NCBI GenBank assembly: GCA_014879865.1
Contig: JACSRG010000272.1
Span: forward strand, 1 to 40,774
Direction: 5' to 3'
Source: Anaerolinea sp.
GTDB taxonomy: Bacteria > Chloroflexota > Anaerolineae > Aggregatilineales > Phototrophicaceae
Length of the DNA: 40,774 nucleotides
Shown here: one piece after another, positions 22,845 to 34,224 of the stretch
Numbering within the stretch: position 1 is the stretch's first letter
How the letters are laid out: each line of letters starts with the position of its first letter
Position numbers and translations under genes: made by a program
The notes under the pieces: model-generated
What the model saw: only the letters and a program-made list of their open reading frames with translations
What the model was told of the DNA's origin: nothing
The model's database searches: none

Positions 22845-23981
22845 TTATTCATAATAGATTATTACCTGCAATAGTGCACTTATCGGAATGCGCTCTTGCT
22901 CTAACCTAAGATTGCGCTCCACCAACCAGCGATACAACCGTCGTTCTTCTTCATCGAGTTCCGGCAAATCGATCAAGGGTGCAGGCGTCCCCTCGACCAC
23001 ATACTCGGCGTAAGCATCGAAAGTCGTTCGATCCATCAATACCGCGCGAATGACTGCCGTTGGCAGTGATCGACGCAGCAGCGCCAAAATCTGAAACCCT
23101 TGTGCGTCCAGATCGCCCCAGTAGTACAGCGGACATTCAGACAACCATCCGACCTGCCCTAGCTGCTCTACTGCAAACCCCTGACCAAAAATTGCAAACG
23201 TCTCCGGGAGCATCGGCAGGCGGAGGAACGGCAATTTGTTCTCGACGATCAAACCGCGCTGCGATCGCAGATTTAGCTGGTTCAAATCCGGTACTGGCAA
23301 ACTGATGTCGGTCAGTGCCAACCCAAAGCGACTCTCAAGCTGATTGTCCAGCAGTCGTATCCGCACCAAGGGCGCATCTTCGTGCAGACCAAACCGTCCA
23401 GCGAAGTGACTTGCTTCCGACTCCCCCTGCCCCGGTGACAGCAGCGCGTCGAGCAGTTCGCGCAAGATACGTTGGTGGGTCTCGACGAACTTTGTATGCA
23501 CCGGGATCGGCAGTTCACGCATCGACAGCGCGGGCTGCGGATGCTCCTGAAAGTAGGCGCATACTTCGAGCAGCGCATCCCATTCGCCGTGATGAACGAT
23601 CACCTTCAGCGGTGAAGCGATCATCCACGCCTCTAAAGCCGGGACGCGCTGGCGGATCAGCGAAACGTCATTGACGAAAGCCTCATATTCGGCTTGTTTG
23701 TCGATGAGGCGCAGGAAAACATCGGCGCTATCCACCCACACAGCGCGCGGTACCGACTGCTTACCCCACTGCCGAAACGTACGAGTCTCGCGCTCGATGC
23801 GGCACCTTTCCCTTTCAAGCGGATCGAGACGCGCCGCCGCCGCGCGCAGTTCGCTGAACTGCTCAGGGAGTTTCCCGACCCGGACTGACAGCGCCGTGAA
23901 AGGCTTGTTCTCAAGCAACTCTCGCAGAAAAGTCTCGTAGTGGCGTGCGAATTTTTGCCGCACCGCATCGGGCGTCAACAT
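22845..23981 (-). CDS. jetD: Wadjet protein JetD (DUF3322/DUF2220, Toprim-type nuclease)
   Basis: WGKQSVPRAVWVDSADVFLRLIDK, LIVENKLPFLRLP, IFGQGFAVEQLGQVGWLSECPLYYWGDLDAQGFQILALLRR, LMDRTTFDAY; last gene of the jetABCD order. Confidence 0.92.
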   Translation of the reverse strand: MLTPDAVRQKFARHYETFLRELLENKPFTALSVRVGKLPEQFSELRAAAARLDPLERERCRIERETRTFRQWGKQSVPRAVWVDSADVFLRLIDKQAEYEAFVNDVSLIRQRVPALEAWMIASPLKVIVHHGEWDALLEVCAYFQEHPQPALSMRELPIPVHTKFVETHQRILRELLDALLSPGQGESEASHFAGRFGLHEDAPLVRIRLLDNQLESRFGLALTDISLPVPDLNQLNLRSQRGLIVENKLPFLRLPMLPETFAIFGQGFAVEQLGQVGWLSECPLYYWGDLDAQGFQILALLRRSLPTAVIRAVLMDRTTFDAYAEYVVEGTPAPLIDLPELDEEERRLYRWLVERNLRLEQERIPISALLQVIIYYE

Positions 23982-23987
23982 GGATGG

Positions 23988-26900
23988 CTATCGGGGCGCT
24001 GACTGCGTATTTTGTTCATATTCGGCGCGCTGCGCTTGATATTCTTCGACGGTCAGGTTGCGGATCCGTGACTCATTCCCCTCCATGTTATTGACCACAT
24101 AGTGATAAGCGCCGACGTAGTGTTCGACCACCGGAATCTTGTCCAGTGGCGTCACGACGAGCAGTTGCAGCCCAAGCCCTCTGAACAACTCCATAGCATA
24201 TCGGGCATTGGCGTCATCGACCTTGCTGAACGCCTCGTCGATCATCACGAAGCGGAAGCTCTGCCGCGCCGGAAGCTCATTGATTGCGTACTGGTATGCG
24301 ACCGCCGATGCCAAAATGGTATACGCCAGCTTGGCTTTTTGACCACCCGACATCCCCGCCGAGTCGCTGTGATACCGCCGCTGGCTGTGATCATCGCGCC
24401 ACAATTCCTCGGCAGCGAAGTTGAGCCAGCGCCGCACGTCAGTGACCTTTTCCGCCCAGCGTTCATCGGTTTCAAAGCGCCGGATCAAAGCCCGGATGCG
24501 CATAAACGCCGCCTCGTTCGCGGCAGCATCATTCCCGACCGTGTTTTCAGTGCAGTCGCGTAGTTCGGCACGAAACGCGCTGATCTCCGGTTCTTGCGTT
24601 AGCTCATAGCGAAGTTGAATATAGACCGAAGTCTCATACGGAATATGCACCAGCGAACTATTCAAGCGGTCAATGACATCGCGGTAGGTATCCACCTGCC
24701 GTTCGAGATCGGCGCGGAAGCCCGCGATATTGTCGATCATCTTCTTGTCCAGCAGTTCTTTGAACCGCCGCTCGAACCGGGGCAAATCCTCACTCTGGAT
24801 ACGTTTGAGCAAATCCTCTAAACCCGGCAGCGCGGCTAAACCACTGCCGATGCTTTCCGTTTCTGCCCTGAATTCTGAGCGGAAATTGGCGATGCGTTCG
24901 ACCAGCGACTGCTCAACTTTGGCGCGCTGATTCTGGTACGTCTGCGCCCGGTTAGAGAAGTATTGACGCATGCGGTCTTGCGCTGAACCAACGTTGTCGA
25001 GACTGAGCGGATCACGGATCAGCTTTTCCAACTCACGATGTATGACTTTCCCCTCTGTTTGCCACATTTCCACCGGATGCTCGCGTAACTCAGCCTCCGC
25101 CTGTTCCAACTGGCGCTTATGCCGGGACAGATCGCTGTTACACGTGCCGATCACCGAATTGAGCCGGTACAACGTATCTTGAAGGTCTTTAGCCTCTTCT
25201 TTCAGCGCATCATGCTGCTCTTGGAGCGTGCGGCGGCGATCTGAACTCGCCTCAAGTCGGCGCTGCTCCTCGATATTCGCTTCATACGCTTGCAGCGGAG
25301 TTCGCCAATCAATCTCTTGGAAGTCTTCAAAGCTCAAGAACTTCCGAATATTATCCTGCCGGGTCTGCGCCTGCCGTTCCCCCTGCTGCGCCCGTTGACG
25401 TTCCCCTTGCAGCTTTTCGATCTCCCCTTGTAGACCCTTAAGCTGTGCGCGCAGCGATTCGAGCTTAACGCGGTTGTCCCATCCTAAAACGTAGCGCGAA
25501 TAATCGCGGATGTTGTACCGGTCATCCTTTTCGTAGCGCGTTTCATCATGCTTGATCTGACCTTCAACGGTGATCCCGCGTCTCTCATGATGCAGTTCGT
25601 CAAGGCTCGCGCAGCACACGTAATCGAACTTCCGGCTGATCTCCGTGCGCAGCCACTCGCCAAACGTGGTATCAGGATGAACTTCAACCTTGCGGTAAAC
25701 AACGTTTGTGGGCAGGCGGGAAAGATTCACAGGGGATGTTTCCTGCACCCGCTGATAGACCAACCTCCCATTGAGGTGATGGTCATTCACATAGCGGCTT
25801 AAACGGGCATAAAAGCGCGACTCGACCAGCAGATTGAGCGCAAAGCCATGCAACAACCGTTCAATCGCCCCTTCCCACGCCGCCTCTTCTTCGCGCACGC
25901 GCAGCAGTTCGCCGGCAAAGGGCAGCGCATTCGCGTCAATTTTCAGCGCGCGCGCCACCTGTTCGCGGATTTCTAGACTCACGCGGGGAATTTGCGTGCG
26001 CCGCTGTTCCAGCGAAGCGATGTCAGCCTCAAGTTCCTTCAACGAGTTCATGCGCGGAGTAAGCTGTACAATCGCCCGGTCTGCATGTTTGCGCGCTTCT
26101 GCCTCAAAATTGATCAACTCAGGCAGTTCTGCTTCTGCCTGCGCGCGGTTGGCATGAAAACTCGCCGCGTCGATGGCTTCGCCCAAGCCGACATCCTCGG
26201 CGGCTTCCGTATAGCGGCGTGCCTTCTCTTGCTTTTTATTGCGCTCCCGACTTAAGTCTTGAGCCTCATCCTTGAGCCGCTGAAGCGCGCGCCCGATTTC
26301 ATCTGCTTCGAGTTCGGCGCGCAACCGGCTGATCTGGCTGTCGGTTTTCTGTTTCTCTGCCTCAAACTGCTGAAAACGCGTCTGATGTTCAGCTAAATCG
26401 ACCTGCACTTGCTTCATTGCCACAGTCAGCAGTTCGTATCGCTGATAGGCAAAATAGAGCGGCAGCACCCTTTCACAGCGCGTAGTCTCTTCGATTTGCC
26501 CATCAATCTGCTGCCAACGAATCGACTCATCGTGGATCGGCAGCAGTAGATCGCGCTGCCGCTGCGCCTTCAAAATCGCTTCGTGTGCTTTGGTCAAATT
26601 CTCGTAGTTATCGCGCAATAGCTGGATTTGCTGCTCGATGTTCGTTCGCTCCAGCATGTGATCGCGGACAAACTGATTCAGGCTGCCAATCTCTTTGATC
26701 GACACGGTTTGATTGAACAATTCGAGCGCCTTTTCCGAGCGCAACCCCAGCAAACCACGAAATTTACTGCTGTAGTCGTTGAATTGGTCGTTGACCTGTA
26801 CGCCTAAACCGCGCAGACGTCGCCGCAGCGCATTTAGCGTCTCAAATCCCGCAAAGTGTTCTTGAATTGAGAGTGGAATCGACGCTGTGAAGTAATCGAC

Positions 26901-27311
26901 CTTCGCCCCACCCTCGGTAAACACCTGTGCAATCGTGACGAATTCCGGCTTTGCCCCCGGACTATGAAAGACCGCCAGCAGCACACTGTAATTGGTCTCA
27001 TCGCGTAAGTACTGCACCTGCCCATCATAGCCGCTTGCCTCGCGCAGGCGGCTGTACGCGCCCCGGACATAGCTTTTGATCGACCGCTCCCGGCGGTTAT
27101 CACCCGACGCTTGGTTATAGCTGCGCTTTCTGCCCGGCACCAGCAGCGAGAGCATCCCATCGACCAGCGTCGATTTGCCCGAACCATTCGCGCCCGTCAG
27201 CAGTGCCGTGAACCGCTCTGGCGCAATCTGCCAGATACGCTTGTCGAACGTTCCCCAGTTATAGACCTCGAACCGGTACAGTGCGTAGCCTGCCTCAATG
27301 GGTTCAATCAT
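23988..27311 (-). CDS. jetC: Wadjet protein JetC (SMC/MukB-like ATPase); probable start at 27311
   Basis: Walker A TGANGSGKSTLVDGMLSLL; long coiled coil; signature SGGQKAKLAYTILASAVAYQY; Walker B FRFVMIDEAFSKVDDANARYAMELF. Confidence 0.95.
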   Translation of the reverse strand: MIEPIEAGYALYRFEVYNWGTFDKRIWQIAPERFTALLTGANGSGKSTLVDGMLSLLVPGRKRSYNQASGDNRRERSIKSYVRGAYSRLREASGYDGQVQYLRDETNYSVLLAVFHSPGAKPEFVTIAQVFTEGGAKVDYFTASIPLSIQEHFAGFETLNALRRRLRGLGVQVNDQFNDYSSKFRGLLGLRSEKALELFNQTVSIKEIGSLNQFVRDHMLERTNIEQQIQLLRDNYENLTKAHEAILKAQRQRDLLLPIHDESIRWQQIDGQIEETTRCERVLPLYFAYQRYELLTVAMKQVQVDLAEHQTRFQQFEAEKQKTDSQISRLRAELEADEIGRALQRLKDEAQDLSRERNKKQEKARRYTEAAEDVGLGEAIDAASFHANRAQAEAELPELINFEAEARKHADRAIVQLTPRMNSLKELEADIASLEQRRTQIPRVSLEIREQVARALKIDANALPFAGELLRVREEEAAWEGAIERLLHGFALNLLVESRFYARLSRYVNDHHLNGRLVYQRVQETSPVNLSRLPTNVVYRKVEVHPDTTFGEWLRTEISRKFDYVCCASLDELHHERRGITVEGQIKHDETRYEKDDRYNIRDYSRYVLGWDNRVKLESLRAQLKGLQGEIEKLQGERQRAQQGERQAQTRQDNIRKFLSFEDFQEIDWRTPLQAYEANIEEQRRLEASSDRRRTLQEQHDALKEEAKDLQDTLYRLNSVIGTCNSDLSRHKRQLEQAEAELREHPVEMWQTEGKVIHRELEKLIRDPLSLDNVGSAQDRMRQYFSNRAQTYQNQRAKVEQSLVERIANFRSEFRAETESIGSGLAALPGLEDLLKRIQSEDLPRFERRFKELLDKKMIDNIAGFRADLERQVDTYRDVIDRLNSSLVHIPYETSVYIQLRYELTQEPEISAFRAELRDCTENTVGNDAAANEAAFMRIRALIRRFETDERWAEKVTDVRRWLNFAAEELWRDDHSQRRYHSDSAGMSGGQKAKLAYTILASAVAYQYAINELPARQSFRFVMIDEAFSKVDDANARYAMELFRGLGLQLLVVTPLDKIPVVEHYVGAYHYVVNNMEGNESRIRNLTVEEYQAQRAEYEQNTQSAPR

Positions 27312-27903
27312 TATCGGCACGCTCCCCATGTTCCGCCAACCGCTGCTTGATCAGCTCAAGCTGATCCGAATCGATCTTGGCTTTCAAGACCGGTCGCACC
27401 AAATAGTCGATCTGCTTCTCGCGCTTGATCTCTTTCAGAAAGCCGAATTCAACCACCTGATTGAGGTCGCGCTCCATAAGCTTCAAACGGGCGCGTTCAT
27501 CTTCTTGCTGCGCGTAAAACGGCTGCATGATCGTCAGCAACGCTTCTCTCGCAAGGATCAGGCGGTAGTTATCGACGTCCGTTGTATCGAACTGATTCAA
27601 CTCCTCCCGCAGCAAAACCAGCAGCACCGTGACCGAATAGCTCAGCGCGCGCCGGCGCACCAAGCGCGGCAAAGGCGCGGTGATGCCTAACTCCTCCTCA
27701 TCCGGCTGCGTCAGATAAGCGAAGCCCTCATTTTCGTTCAGATAAAGCTGCACGCCCATTTGCGTGAAATAAGTGCTGATCGGCGTCTGGTAGCGCAGGA
27801 CAAGCCCCCACACGTCATCATCCGCATACACTATCCCTTGTAGAAGCCGGATGAGCGCCGCCGCGTAAGGGCTGGGTCCTTCTCGAATATCATCTTGAGT
27901 CAT
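27304..27903 (-). CDS. jetB: Wadjet protein JetB (DUF4194)
   Basis: LIRLLQGIVYADDDVWGLVLRYQTPISTYFTQMGVQLYLNENEGFAYL; sits between jetA (4-nt overlap) and jetC. Confidence 0.92.
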   Translation of the reverse strand: MTQDDIREGPSPYAAALIRLLQGIVYADDDVWGLVLRYQTPISTYFTQMGVQLYLNENEGFAYLTQPDEEELGITAPLPRLVRRRALSYSVTVLLVLLREELNQFDTTDVDNYRLILAREALLTIMQPFYAQQEDERARLKLMERDLNQVVEFGFLKEIKREKQIDYLVRPVLKAKIDSDQLELIKQRLAEHGERADND

Positions 27904-29345
27904 GGTCGATAGTGTCCGTAAACAATATGCGGAAGCCGCAAACGTAACTTACTGGTGCCGTCGGTGAGCGTAAGCGCGATCTCGTCATAACGCTCGGTAT
28001 CAATCTGGTGCTGTGGCGACTCGTCGGCGATTTGAAGATATGCCAGCAGTTCCGCCACCCCCTTCCCCGGTGGATAATGCTCCAATACTTCGACCAACGA
28101 AACGGACGGGGATTTTTCCAGCAGTCGTGCTAATTGTTCGCGCAGCAGATCAAGATCGACATAAAACTGAGCATACAGCGCCTGCAATGCGCTTAAATCA
28201 TCTTCCTCTCCGACCAGCAGATCGGGAGCATCCACTTTTGTATTCAAACCGGGACTCCACAAGGGACGATCCATGATCACGCTGATATCCGGCGCAGTTT
28301 CAAGCACGAAGAACGCGCCTTCCGGTGGATGTTGGCTATGCTCAAAGGCAAGCTGCTTGATCTCCGCGCACAATGCGCGTACTCGCTGATTCTCGGCAAG
28401 GGTCTGCTCGTCAAGCATGCGACGAAGCTGTTCGGAAAGCTGCTGGTTCGAAGCGATCACTTTTTGTCCGGCATCCAACAGGCGTCTTGTCAGCGACGGA
28501 AGGATCGAGGAGTCACGCAGCGCGGCAAGTTCCGGCAGCGCATGAATCGCCCTGATCAACTCTGCCAGTTCGTCCTTTTGCGCCGGGATCAGCAAATACT
28601 GCCAGAAAGCGCGAAAGCTCCGCCCCTCGTCAGACGATTCGAGCGCCTCGTCCGCATCCAACACATCACCCAGTACGACGCCTCTTTGAACATTCGGACG
28701 CAGAGTCGCCTCCTGTGTCTTCCGCGCTAAATCCCGGAAATTCTGCTCCACAGCGGCGAAGTCGCTTAATAGGCGGACAGCATTTTCATTCACCTGCAAG
28801 AATCGCTCGCGTATCTGCGTTTCGTTGTAGCGCTGCACCCGCCCTGTCGTCTCGATTGCGTCGATCTCGCGTTGCAGCGCCGCCTGCTGTGCGCGCAAAA
28901 ATAGCATACGCTGTTCCGGGTCTTCTGTACTGTTCGCGATAATCTCGCGCAGTGTCTCGAAAATACTGCGGAAGCGTGATTCAGTGCCAACAAACGGACG
29001 CTGGCGTAGTTCTTCAAACCACCGGATCACGCGCTCGGTTTCGGACGTGAGGTCAACCATCCACGCGTTTTCCGTACCGGCATAGATGCGCAGCAGCCTC
29101 AGCTCCTTGCTCCACGCATCAAGATATTCCTTTGCGGAACGCGGAAAACTGCCCGGTTGTTGTTCATTCAGCCGATCCAGCATGGCATCTAAGTTACCCA
29201 ACAGTTCGTCGTATGGAACAGTGACTCGCTGCTGCTGTTTGAACTGCTCGTAAAAGAAGCTGACGATCAGCGGAGCGTGCTGCTGGCGCAGAAGTTTTAA
29301 GCTGGGGCTGTTCTCCAAATCAGACTTGATCTGCGCGAAATCCAT
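27900..29345 (-). CDS. jetA: Wadjet protein JetA (DUF3375)
   Basis: SLKLLRQQHAPLIVSFFYEQFKQQQRVTVPYDELLGNLDAML...YLDAWSKELRLLRIY...; first gene of a four-gene operon in canonical order. Confidence 0.92.
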   Translation of the reverse strand: MDFAQIKSDLENSPSLKLLRQQHAPLIVSFFYEQFKQQQRVTVPYDELLGNLDAMLDRLNEQQPGSFPRSAKEYLDAWSKELRLLRIYAGTENAWMVDLTSETERVIRWFEELRQRPFVGTESRFRSIFETLREIIANSTEDPEQRMLFLRAQQAALQREIDAIETTGRVQRYNETQIRERFLQVNENAVRLLSDFAAVEQNFRDLARKTQEATLRPNVQRGVVLGDVLDADEALESSDEGRSFRAFWQYLLIPAQKDELAELIRAIHALPELAALRDSSILPSLTRRLLDAGQKVIASNQQLSEQLRRMLDEQTLAENQRVRALCAEIKQLAFEHSQHPPEGAFFVLETAPDISVIMDRPLWSPGLNTKVDAPDLLVGEEDDLSALQALYAQFYVDLDLLREQLARLLEKSPSVSLVEVLEHYPPGKGVAELLAYLQIADESPQHQIDTERYDEIALTLTDGTSKLRLRLPHIVYGHYRP

Positions 29346-29423: not shown

Positions 29424-29487
29424 TAAGTTACCCAACACTTGCTAAGTTACCCAACATGATTTACCATATATGTGTTGGGTAACTTAG
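29424..29487. repeat. Cluster of three TAAGTTACCCAACA(C) sites: two direct (29424-29438, 29443-29456) and one inverted (29472-29486); 15-bp perfect inverted repeat 29442-29456/29473-29487
   Basis: Read directly: taagttacccaacac / taagttacccaaca / gtgttgggtaactta between divergent jetA and the orphan gene. Confidence 0.95.
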
Positions 29488-29495
29488 AAAAGATC

Positions 29496-30194
29496 ATGCC
29501 GAGAAGCATTTACCGCAGCACACCACTGCTGCTAGACCAAGTCCTGCATCCACCCGGAGCTTCGCAGCGCGAAAGCGTTATTCCCGTCGATTCTCCGGAG
29601 TGGTTTCGATGGCTGGAAACAGGATCACGCTTCGCTTACCGGCTTGAACTCGCGGGCTGGCGTCCACACACGATCACCTTCCGCTCGGAAAAGAAGCAGC
29701 GCGGCGGCACGTACTGGTCAGCGTACATGAAAGATCAGCTCGGAAAACTGCATAAGCTCTACGCGGGCAAACTGGCGGAGCTAACTTGGGAGCGCATCAG
29801 TCACATCCTCGACGCTATGCGCGAGAAACTGACAGCCGCCGCCCCAACTTTAAGTTACCCAACACATCCGGCTGCAAAAGAGAAACAAGCAGCGGGCAAG
29901 CAGACACAAACACTACCGGCTTTGACCGCCCAAGATGTCGCGCAATTTCACCGCTATGATGCACTGCTAACTTTTTGCAGCGAGGCTTTCGAGCAGCGCT
30001 GGGGGCACGCTTGGCGCTGGGAAAACGGCAAGATTTACCGCAACACCTTCGACAAGTACTACTACGTGATGGATCAATCCGGCGAACAGAAGCATATTCT
30101 AGGAAAGCAGCGCTATTTCGTTGTAGTTCAGCTGCTGCATTGGGTAAATCACGGCTACGATGAAGGGTACAATGATAAGTTATCCAACACGTGA
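29496..30194 (+). CDS. Hypothetical protein with a putative integrase-arm/AP2-like DNA-binding region
   Basis: SPEWFRWLETGSRFAYRLELAG...ITFRSEKKQRGGTYWSAYMKDQLGKLHKLYAGKLAELTWERI resembles N-terminal regions of Chloroflexota LuxR/MalT-type regulators and integrase arm-binding domains (recalled, not searched). Confidence 0.6.
   Translation: MPRSIYRSTPLLLDQVLHPPGASQRESVIPVDSPEWFRWLETGSRFAYRLELAGWRPHTITFRSEKKQRGGTYWSAYMKDQLGKLHKLYAGKLAELTWERISHILDAMREKLTAAAPTLSYPTHPAAKEKQAAGKQTQTLPALTAQDVAQFHRYDALLTFCSEAFEQRWGHAWRWENGKIYRNTFDKYYYVMDQSGEQKHILGKQRYFVVVQLLHWVNHGYDEGYNDKLSNT
29851..29865. repeat. Fourth exact TAAGTTACCCAACAC site, inside the orphan ORF
   Basis: ctttaagttacccaacacatcc; encodes LSYPTHP in an Ala/Lys/Gln-rich linker. 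Confidence 0.9.
30176..30190. repeat. Fifth, one-mismatch site TAAGTTATCCAACAC at the 3' end of the orphan ORF, 15 bp before the recombinase ATG
   Basis: gataagttatccaacacgtgaggaggcgacgatg. Confidence 0.8.
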
Positions 30195-30204
30195 GGAGGC
30201 GACG

Positions 30205-31062
30205 ATGCTCGAAGAATTCGAACAACATCTGCGCGAAGAACTCGACTTATCCGACAAGACCATCCGTGCCTACCTCTCTGATGTACGTCAGTTCGGGCAG
30301 TGGTATGAGCGATGGGCAGACCGCGCCTTCATGCTCAAAGATATTTCTACCCCTACCCTCACTCGCTACCGTGCCAACCTTATCGAACGCCTCAAGCCAG
30401 CTAGCATCAACCGCCGCATTGTCAGCCTCAAGCGCTTCTTCGCATGGGCAGTCGCTACGGGCATGATCGAGCGTGACCCGGCGAAACCGCTCCGGCAGAT
30501 CAAAGACGTTCCACCACCACCGCGCCACCTGACCGACCAAGAAGAAGCAGCACTGATGTCCGCAGTTAGCAAATACGGCACCAACCGCGACGTTGCCCTG
30601 ATTACGCTGATGCTGCACACTGGCATCCGCACCGCCGAACTCTGCGACCTGACCCGTGCCGACATCAAAATCGCTCCTCGGAGCGGCACAATCACTATAC
30701 GCAAAGGCAAAGGCAGCAAGCGGCGCGAGATACCGCTCAACATCACCGCGCGCACCGCTCTCAACGCCTACCTGCCCGACCTAGCAAGCGATGCCGCTTA
30801 CCTGTTTCCCGGCAGGAATAACCAGCGCCTCACCGAGCGCGCGGTCGGCTATGTCATCGCCAAATTCGCCCATCTCGCCAAACTGAAAGACCTCAGTCCG
30901 CATGATTTGCGTCATCGCTTCGGCTACCGCATGGCAGAAAACACGCCGATCCACCGCCTCGCCCAGCTCATGGGACACGACTCGGTCGATACCACCCTAC
31001 TCTACATCGGCGCGACCGCTCAAGACCTTCAAGCTGAAGTGGACAAAATCGCGTGGGAGTAG
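30205..31062 (+). CDS. Tyrosine recombinase/integrase (XerC/XerD-like)
   Basis: N-terminal SAM-like domain FEQHLREELDLSDKTIRAYLSDVRQF; catalytic HTGIRTAELCDL, SPHDLRHRFGYRMAE, LMGHDSVDTTLLYI; ATG at 30205 with GAGGAGG upstream. Confidence 0.93.
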   Translation: MLEEFEQHLREELDLSDKTIRAYLSDVRQFGQWYERWADRAFMLKDISTPTLTRYRANLIERLKPASINRRIVSLKRFFAWAVATGMIERDPAKPLRQIKDVPPPPRHLTDQEEAALMSAVSKYGTNRDVALITLMLHTGIRTAELCDLTRADIKIAPRSGTITIRKGKGSKRREIPLNITARTALNAYLPDLASDAAYLFPGRNNQRLTERAVGYVIAKFAHLAKLKDLSPHDLRHRFGYRMAENTPIHRLAQLMGHDSVDTTLLYIGATAQDLQAEVDKIAWE

Positions 31063-32398: not shown

Positions 32399-32649
32399 CT
32401 TATGACTCCAATCTGATTTCGCTAAACCTCTGAATCTGAATTCTTGCTTTTGTTCCTTGAATGGCGTATTATACTTTTAAGTGCCGATTTATTCAAACAA
32501 GTTTATGAAAATCAGCAACCGGATTCACGTATTCACATTCTAAATCGACCCATTTATATAAACGAGATATAAAACTCGTGCTTTCCAGCCTATTCAGACT
32601 GCTTTCGCGAATCATAACTCGATTTAACCAGAATGGAGAAAAACCGCCA

Positions 32650-33816
32650 ATGCCTCCAAAAGCTGCAACATCCGACTCGTTAGTTGACGAAAATTTCATC
32701 TCTTCCGACGCAGGAAACGGTTGGGCAGCCTGCTACCGGCTGGTCAATGGCAAGGTGAAACAGCACGGCATTCCGCACGCGCGCGCCCGGGTCACCGGGG
32801 CAAAACTGGATACCGATATAGGCGCGCAGAACACCGCCGACTACGCCGATTTTATGGGGCAGCGTTATGGCTACGGTGATGGTATCTGGAACTTGACCGA
32901 CGCGCCCATCGACCTGCACCAGAACACCGCGCGCCGCTACGGCGGGAACATGCACATCTTCTTGATGCTGGTCAACATCGCCGAGATGAACGTTAAATCC
33001 GGCAGCGAGCTCACGCTCATCGTTCCAGCGCCACCCGGCTTACTGAACGAAGTAGGACCGCAAATCAAAAAATCCATCCTCGCCGGGGAATCCGGGAAAA
33101 ACGACGGAGTCTGGTCCATTCAACTGCGCAAGGACAAGAAGCCGCGCGAATACAAGTTCATCCGCGTGATTACGCTGCCGGAAGGGGCAGGAGCCGTCGC
33201 CGCCTACCGTTTCAACCTTGCCGGCGACCTCGTCGATCTCAAGGACAAAAGCGGCGGAGACATGCTCGCCGGGCGCATCGCCGTGCTTGACCTTGGCGCA
33301 GGTACGGGCGACACCTACACCATCTTCAACGGCAATCTCAACCCGGATGCCATCGCTACGGCAACTGACGACAAAGCGGGCGTGATTCACAACCTGCTCC
33401 GACCCATCCTCAGCGATGTGCTGAGCGCCGTTCCCGAAGCCCGCCACCTGACCACCGCTCATATCGACAGCTACCTGCGCCGCTACATCGCCAATCCAAC
33501 CCCCGAAGCCGCCACCGTGCGCGTCGCGGGCAAAAATGTCAACTTCGAGAAAAGCATCCTTGCCAACTGCGAACGCTATGCTGAATGGATCGGTGCCAAC
33601 AAGATCGATCCCCTCTGGGCGGCGGGGACAGACGCGATTGTCCAAGCGGGCGGCGGCTGGATTTACATTCAATCGTGGATCAGGAAATGGTACCCGGAAC
33701 GCCTCATCCTGTCGCCGGAAATGTTCCCACATACGCGCAACATGCCGCTCTATGACCTGAACGGCATCGGACAGCTTTCGTTTGCTGCCGCGATCATGCG
33801 CCAGCAGCAGCCGTAG
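32650..33816 (+). CDS. Actin-like ATPase, ParM/Alp-type
   Basis: Phosphate-1 SSDAGNGWAACYR, phosphate-2 AVLDLGAGTGDTYTIFNG, adenosine motif QAGGGWIYIQSWI; ATG at 32650 preceded by GGAG. Confidence 0.82.
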   Translation: MPPKAATSDSLVDENFISSDAGNGWAACYRLVNGKVKQHGIPHARARVTGAKLDTDIGAQNTADYADFMGQRYGYGDGIWNLTDAPIDLHQNTARRYGGNMHIFLMLVNIAEMNVKSGSELTLIVPAPPGLLNEVGPQIKKSILAGESGKNDGVWSIQLRKDKKPREYKFIRVITLPEGAGAVAAYRFNLAGDLVDLKDKSGGDMLAGRIAVLDLGAGTGDTYTIFNGNLNPDAIATATDDKAGVIHNLLRPILSDVLSAVPEARHLTTAHIDSYLRRYIANPTPEAATVRVAGKNVNFEKSILANCERYAEWIGANKIDPLWAAGTDAIVQAGGGWIYIQSWIRKWYPERLILSPEMFPHTRNMPLYDLNGIGQLSFAAAIMRQQQP

Positions 33817-33828
33817 GGGAGGAAAACC

Positions 33829-34224
33829 ATGCAGCGTTCTCAAACTCAAAAGCCGGGGAATGGCGAAGGGCAGGGCGGGGCGATCAGCCTCGTCTTCGAC
33901 CTCTCCGATCCGCTGGAGCGCGAAGCCTACGAGATGGCGAAACAGCTTGCCCGACCGCATGGACGCCGCAAGCATGTGATTGTGGCGCTGCTTTACGGGT
34001 TGAGCATGTATCAACGTCGCACTGGCATTGAGTTGAACACTGATTTGGTGATGGGGATGGCGGTTTCCGGTAATCTTATCGGCGGGGGCGGGCTGGATAT
34101 CTCAGCCACTTCACGACCAATGACCCTTGATGAGCCAACCGTCGTGATCGCCACCGCCGAGAAGGGGACTAAAGAAGAATTCGCCGCGAACTTCTTCTCT
34201 AGCTTCGGAAATTTCTTGGATTGA
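33829..34224 (+). CDS. Small protein downstream of the actin-like gene; possible segregation adaptor (ParR-like position)
   Basis: 131 aa, 12 bp after the actin-like stop; ISLVFDLSDPLEREAYEMAKQLARPHGRRKHVIVALLYGLSMYQRRTG. Function inferred from position and size. Confidence 0.55.
   Translation: MQRSQTQKPGNGEGQGGAISLVFDLSDPLEREAYEMAKQLARPHGRRKHVIVALLYGLSMYQRRTGIELNTDLVMGMAVSGNLIGGGGLDISATSRPMTLDEPTVVIATAEKGTKEEFAANFFSSFGNFLD

What the first reader, a model, noticed from the sequence alone, without database searches (positions are those of the whole stretch)
29424..30190. Array of a 15-bp motif TAAGTTACCCAACAC (4 exact/near-exact plus one 1-mismatch) around the Wadjet divergent promoter and orphan gene
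Seen: sites at 29424, 29443 (19 bp apart, direct), 29472 (inverted; perfect 15-bp inverted repeat with 29442-29456), 29851 (inside the ORF) and 30176 (TAAGTTATCCAACAC, just before the recombinase). This far exceeds chance for a 14-15-mer in 770 bp. Inference: (a) operators for a regulator of jetABCD or the orphan gene, (b) recombinase core/arm sites, or (c) a dispersed repeat family. The 19-bp spacing and inverted pair between divergent genes favour protein binding.
Basis: partly seen in the sequence, partly recalled or inferred. Interest (0 to 1): 0.75.

Follow-up and report, generated by a model that had tools for sequence, protein, structure and literature searches.

The report
Self-control switch beside Wadjet defence genes
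Six copies of a short DNA word around a bacterial anti-plasmid defence system are most likely landing sites for the small protein encoded next door, which appears to belong to an unnamed family of DNA-binding proteins whose genes carry the same word in their own promoters.

Summary
The array is real and larger than reported: six copies, not five (29190, 29424, 29443, 29472 inverted, 29851, 30176). It is confined to this 1-kb locus in a 6.4-Mb genome. The sites are most likely operators of the orphan gene's own product (29496-30194), not recombinase sites. That protein's N-terminal domain has no Pfam, NCBIfam or PHROG entry. It also occurs in ~1000-aa MalT/LuxR-type regulators, in small stand-alone proteins, and on cyanobacterial plasmids. 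Sixteen of 26 such genes in the window's class have, just upstream, the same inverted pair GTTACCCAACA/TGTTGGGTAAC, 26-29 bp start to start; 0 of 2600 shuffles and none of 69 kb of flanking DNA do. The two half-sites co-vary. One half often sits between the promoter's -35 and -10 boxes, and sites 29443 and 29472 repeat that layout. A motif model built without the window ranks the six sites 1-6 of ~81,500 positions. A pattern scan of 396 genomes found exact pairs at three places, each just upstream of a domain gene. Cyanobacterial plasmid relatives sit in their own AGTTACAGA arrays. Autoregulation is likely. Control of jetABCD is plausible but unproven. The recombinase is TnpI-like, but its relatives use a different motif.

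The parts
29190..29204 (+). site s1, TAAGTTACCCAACAG, inside jetA codons 48-52
   Evidence: rank 1 with the independent PWM
29424..29438 (+). site s2, exact, upstream of the putative -35 box
29443..29457 (+). site s3, first half of the conserved inverted pair; lies largely in the 17-bp spacer of the putative promoter
29472..29486 (-). site s4, second (inverted) half of the conserved pair, just after the -10 box
29851..29865 (+). site s5, inside the linker-coding part of the orphan gene
30176..30190 (+). site s6, TAAGTTATCCAACAC, last codons of the orphan gene, 14 bp before the recombinase start
29439..29444 (+). putative -35 box TTGCTA of the orphan-recombinase operon (4 of 6)
   Evidence: aligned with TTGACA in homologous promoters; not found by the generic scan
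29462..29467 (+). putative -10 box TACCAT (4 of 6), 17-bp spacer
29496..30194 (+). orphan gene: unnamed N-terminal domain (WFxWL...RKExR..YWYAYR..GKL.K.YLGK..LT...LE) plus ~100-aa unknown C-terminal part; predicted binder of the sites. The GTG at 29472 lies inside s4 and is an unlikely start
30205..31062 (+). tyrosine recombinase, TnpI-like (48-56% identical to Tn3-family TnpI), probably co-transcribed with the orphan
22845..29345 (-). jetD, jetC, jetB, jetA of a type I Wadjet system, divergent from the orphan gene

Best explanation
The array is the autogenous operator set of the orphan gene. The orphan's N-terminal domain is the DNA reader of GTTACCCAACA (inferred from co-occurrence and co-variation; binding not shown). 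Two copies facing each other (s3, s4) flank the -10 box of the promoter that drives the orphan and the downstream recombinase, with s3 largely in the -35/-10 spacer, so occupancy should block RNA polymerase and repress the operon (inferred). The tandem copy s2 and the distant copies s1, s5 and s6 would strengthen this by cooperative binding or DNA looping, as auxiliary operators do (inferred). Because the same 150 bp separates divergent jetA, the protein may also tune jetABCD (plausible, not shown).
For: The same motif as an inverted pair lies 25-270 bp upstream of 16 of 26 usable domain-bearing genes from other genomes; 0 of 2600 shuffled upstream regions and 0 of 69 kb of flanking sequence have one. 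Most of the other genes keep a single half-site near the start codon. A PWM built from those sites without the window ranks s1-s6 as positions 1-6 of ~81,500, scores 15.1-21.5 against 11.2 for the next. The exact pair was sought in 396 genomes irrespective of genes: three places (window, G669:C118:4730-4766, G690:C392:19383-19420), each just upstream of a domain gene, with 0 reversed controls; only 26 of the 396 genomes have the domain. Half-sites co-vary within loci: mean distance 0.65 against 1.71 shuffled, 0 of 5000 permutations reach it. Half-site 1 falls between TTGACA-like and TATAAT-like boxes in several promoters. Proteins with YRW instead of YRR are those with a CTT start of the site (3 of 3 against 0 of 14). 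Distant relatives on cyanobacterial plasmids sit in their own AGTTACAGA arrays, absent or rare elsewhere on those stretches.
Against: There is no binding or expression data. The YRW correlation rests on three loci of one family (f123). The window's promoter boxes are weak (4 of 6 each) and the generic scan finds none. The single-sequence fold of the orphan was unusable (pLDDT 35). No other Wadjet locus with this gene was found. s1, s5 and s6 have only sporadic counterparts in relatives.
Confidence: 0.8

Rival explanations
1. The sites are binding sites of the TnpI-like recombinase, an internal resolution site plus extra copies, used to resolve dimers or cointegrates and to repress its own operon.
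For: Recombinase homologues (48-56% identical) next to Tn3 transposases have upstream motif arrays (a core inverted pair plus two direct repeats ~35 bp apart) in the same general position. Tn5401 is reported to carry extra TnpI sites near its ends (PMC7157771).
Against: Those arrays use ATGTCYGCTAAY even at 41% identity; our motif scores poorly against that PWM (ranks 721-3716 of 81,526) and no canonical array lies near our recombinase. No core pair with a 6-bp spacer exists among the sites. No Tn3 transposase is in the window. Exact and near pairs of our motif lie upstream of domain genes, in most cases with no such recombinase nearby.
Confidence: 0.07
2. The orphan protein is a plasmid-maintenance protein of KfrA or ParB-like type: the array is both its operator and a centromere-like site, a relic of a plasmid that carried ParM and the recombinase.
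For: Relatives on eight cyanobacterial plasmids, several with C-terminal coiled coils, two divergent from a ParA ATPase (Nostoc HK-01), genes studded with 9-bp repeats. A ParM-like partition protein (PHROG partition family) lies 2.5 kb away at 32578-33816. RA3 KfrA binds five 9-bp repeats over its own promoter and aids maintenance (PMC7783346).
Against: Most relatives in the window's class are chromosomal-type MalT/LuxR regulators with one pair only. The contig's left flank is polysaccharide genes. ParA adjacency in only 2 of the plasmid loci examined.
Confidence: 0.15
3. The protein's main task is to regulate the Wadjet operon, as WYL-type BrxR does for BREX, with autoregulation incidental.
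For: Divergent shared 150-bp region; s1 inside jetA; s2 between s3 and jetA. Autorepressors bound to inverted repeats next to defence genes are known (PMC9122601).
Against: No other domain gene examined adjoins Wadjet (no jet hit around the relatives tested). No clear jetA promoter identified.
Confidence: 0.3
4. Dispersed repeat family or chance.
For: None found beyond the presence of copies inside coding sequence.
Against: Six copies in 1 kb, no further copies in 6.4 Mb; conserved upstream of homologous genes.
Confidence: 0.01

Closest known systems
MalT/LAL-type LuxR regulators and SARP-LAL regulators
   Same: Many relatives with the domain are ~1000-aa proteins; the two examined have a MalT-like ATPase/TPR region and a C-terminal GerE HTH, plus an extra N-terminal domain that here appears to read promoter repeats. 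SARP-LAL proteins likewise combine a DNA-binding SARP part with a LAL part and bind heptameric direct repeats (PMC5930380).
   Different: The N-terminal domain matches no Pfam, NCBIfam or PHROG family; sites are an inverted pair in the gene's own promoter; the window protein lacks the whole MalT/LuxR part.
KfrA of plasmids RK2/RA3
   Same: Autoregulator; RA3 operator is five 9-bp direct repeats overlapping its promoter; coiled-coil tail resembles the cyanobacterial plasmid members (PMC7783346).
   Different: KfrA uses an HTH; the domain here has no HTH match; arrays extend into the coding region; the window protein has no long coiled coil.
BrxR family of defence-island repressors
   Same: Repressor gene beside a defence operon, 11-bp inverted half-sites at its own promoter (PMC9122601).
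   Different: BrxR is a wHTH-WYL protein with a 5-bp spacer between half-sites; no WYL or HTH match here; spacer ~15-18 bp.
TnpI/IRS resolution system of Tn4430 and Tn5401
   Same: The adjacent recombinase is TnpI-like.
   Different: Different motif, no core pair, no transposase.

Membership tests
Autogenous operator of the unnamed YWYAYR-domain family | Gene encodes the domain | tested here: met
   29-37% identity to 15 relatives, invariant W, L, R, E, W, Y, L, Y, G columns
Autogenous operator of the unnamed YWYAYR-domain family | Inverted GTTACCCAACA pair upstream of the gene at ~25-29 bp start to start | tested here: met
   s3/s4
Autogenous operator of the unnamed YWYAYR-domain family | Protein binds the pair | not testable with these tools
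   needs EMSA or DAP-seq
TnpI/IRS of Tn3-family transposons | TnpI-like tyrosine recombinase | tested here: met
TnpI/IRS of Tn3-family transposons | Core of two inverted arms with ~6-bp spacer plus DR1 and DR2 | tested here: not met
TnpI/IRS of Tn3-family transposons | Adjacent Tn3-family transposase | tested here: not met
   no credible TnpA match in the window
MalT/LAL-type LuxR regulator | MalT-like ATPase/TPR and GerE HTH | tested here: not met
   window protein has no Pfam match; relatives do
KfrA | HTH N-terminus and long coiled-coil tail | tested here: not met
   no Pfam match; tail only ~100 aa
BrxR (WYL) repressor | wHTH and WYL domains | tested here: not met
   no match
Type I Wadjet | jetA, jetB, jetC, jetD side by side on one strand | tested here: met
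   JetA1, B1, C1, D1

The most novel reading that the evidence does not exclude
An undescribed DNA-binding domain family that carries its own operator in its promoter and, on plasmids, arrays inside its own genes: the domain has been fused to MalT/LuxR regulators, used beside ParA in plasmid maintenance, and here acts as the switch of a Wadjet defence island.
Probability: 0.35. Interest if true: 0.7.

Novelty: new variant of a known kind. Interest (0 to 1): 0.58.

Why it matters
It gives a testable protein-site pair for a domain that had no name and no assigned function in the libraries searched, and so a likely readable operator for many MalT/LuxR-type regulators of the window's class and for plasmid proteins of cyanobacteria. 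If the protein also represses jetABCD, it would be a candidate local regulator of a Wadjet system, about whose control I found little in the papers searched. The half-site co-variation, and a candidate specificity residue (the residue after YWYAYR), make recognition directly testable.

Tried and rejected
Recombinase resolution site (TnpI/IRS): pursued through homologues in the window's phylum and Paenibacillus plasmids; their conserved motif differs and is absent here. Element-wide inverted or direct end repeats and an empty site in relatives: none found. Plasmid contig: no terminal overlap. Genome-wide regulon: near matches elsewhere do not clearly exceed the control. Exact 14-mer scans of large collections: single chance hits, uninformative. 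Relatives of the orphan or the recombinase in viral contigs: none; relatives of the Nostoc member in phages: none. Pfam, NCBIfam and PHROG names for the orphan: none. PDB profile search: only chance-level hits, E 0.9. Structure prediction: unusable. Literature by motif letters: no relevant paper.

Full report
Observation. I number them s1 29190(+), s2 29424(+), s3 29443(+), s4 29472(-), s5 29851(+), s6 30176(+). Nine matches with up to three mismatches stand against 0.38 expected. In the 6.42-Mb genome the motif occurs nowhere else, and near matches do not clearly exceed the reversed-pattern control. The copies inside genes use improbable synonymous codons (0.0003-0.001 each), so the DNA word itself seems to be kept.

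Surroundings. jetA, B, C and D are a type I Wadjet operon on the minus strand. Divergent from it are the orphan gene, whose likely start is ATG 29496 since GTG 29472 lies inside s4, and a tyrosine recombinase at 30205-31062. Farther right are a GIY-YIG-type protein (T5orf172), a coiled-coil protein with a weak N-terminal HTH match, and a ParM-like partition protein. Polysaccharide genes lie on the left; a radical SAM protein and a nucleotidyltransferase lie on the right.

First lead, rejected. The recombinase is 48-56% identical to TnpI-type recombinases next to Tn3 transposases. Those genes carry upstream resolution sites: a core of inverted arms and two direct repeats ~35 bp apart, motif ATGTCYGCTAAY. 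That layout agrees with the description of Tn4430 and Tn5401 in PMC7157771. No such motif lies near our recombinase, our six sites rank only 721st to 3716th of 81,526 with that model, no core pair exists and no transposase is present. The recombinase may derive from a transposon resolvase, but these are probably not its sites.

Second lead, accepted. The orphan's N-terminal ~110 residues are shared by stand-alone proteins and ~1000-aa proteins in 26 of 396 genomes of the class, with nine invariant columns in a 16-sequence alignment. Two of the long ones have MalT-like TPRs, an AAA ATPase match and a C-terminal GerE HTH. Upstream of these genes the same word recurs. Of 26 genes with enough upstream sequence, 16 have the inverted pair GTTACCCAACA...TGTTGGGTAAC, with halves 26-29 bp apart start to start. 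None of 2600 shuffled upstream sequences and none of 69 kb of flanking sequence has one. Our s3/s4 pair has the same form (GTTACCCAACA at 29446 and its inverse ending at 29483, 27 bp start to start).

Independent checks. A PWM from 42 sites at 23 other loci puts s1-s6 in ranks 1-6 of the window, scores 15.1-21.5 against 11.2 for rank 7. A pattern scan of 396 genomes for the exact pair, blind to genes, found three places, each just upstream of a domain gene, with no reversed control (compared). The two halves change together: mean distance within loci 0.65, shuffled 1.71, 0 of 5000 permutations. The three loci whose halves start with C instead of G (L260, L265, L271) are the three whose proteins read YRW instead of YRR or YRK; all three are from one family, so this is suggestive only. 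In promoters such as L260, L265, L268, L271 and L273 the first half lies between TTGACA and a TATAAT-like box, and the second half follows the -10 box. In the window TTGCTA (29439-29444), 17 bp, TACCAT (29462-29467) hold s3 in the same place, with s4 after the -10 box and s2 before the -35 box. The boxes are weak and the generic scan found none.

Wider family. Relatives on cyanobacterial plasmids (Oscillatoria, Nostoc, Aulosira, Tolypothrix) sit in arrays of AGTTACAGA-like repeats, upstream and inside the gene; the Oscillatoria promoter TTGACA-17-TATAAT has two GTTAC words in its spacer. Scytonema and Moorena relatives have other short repeats upstream. Several end in coiled-coil-like stretches, and two lie divergent from a ParA ATPase. 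This resembles KfrA, whose operator on RA3 is five 9-bp repeats over its own promoter (PMC7783346).

Mechanism. Shown: site distribution, conservation, co-variation and promoter geometry. Inferred: the domain binds the word; binding of the s3/s4 pair represses the orphan-recombinase operon; s1, s2, s5 and s6 help by cooperativity or looping; jetABCD may be co-regulated because the promoters share 150 bp. The last step is the least certain. A maintenance or partition role is a serious rival, given the plasmid relatives and the nearby ParM-like gene.

Limits.

Noticed in passing
30205-31062: TnpI-like recombinase without any Tn3 transposase or canonical TnpI resolution site; possibly a transposon resolvase taken over by a mobile or defence island.
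   Followed up: partly
L287, L302, L317, L319, L321, L325, L328: Several TnpI-type loci in the window's phylum, most with a Tn3 transposase match, with clear resolution-site arrays (core plus two direct repeats ~35 bp apart); PMC7157771 lists only three TnpI-carrying Tn3-family members, so the group looks under-described.
   Followed up: partly
L337:3882-5465 and L338:4047-5474: Two copies on Nostoc HK-01 plasmid3 of ParA divergent from a domain gene with AGTTAC repeats between and inside: a candidate undescribed partition cassette.
   Followed up: partly
32578-33816: ParM-like gene with no Pfam or NCBIfam match (PHROG partition protein, E 1e-12), followed by a small ORF 33829-34224 that could be its partner.
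   Followed up: no
815-2655: Two IS3-like (HTH_21/rve) transposase genes in opposite orientation forming a ~400-bp imperfect inverted repeat at the contig's left end.
   Followed up: no
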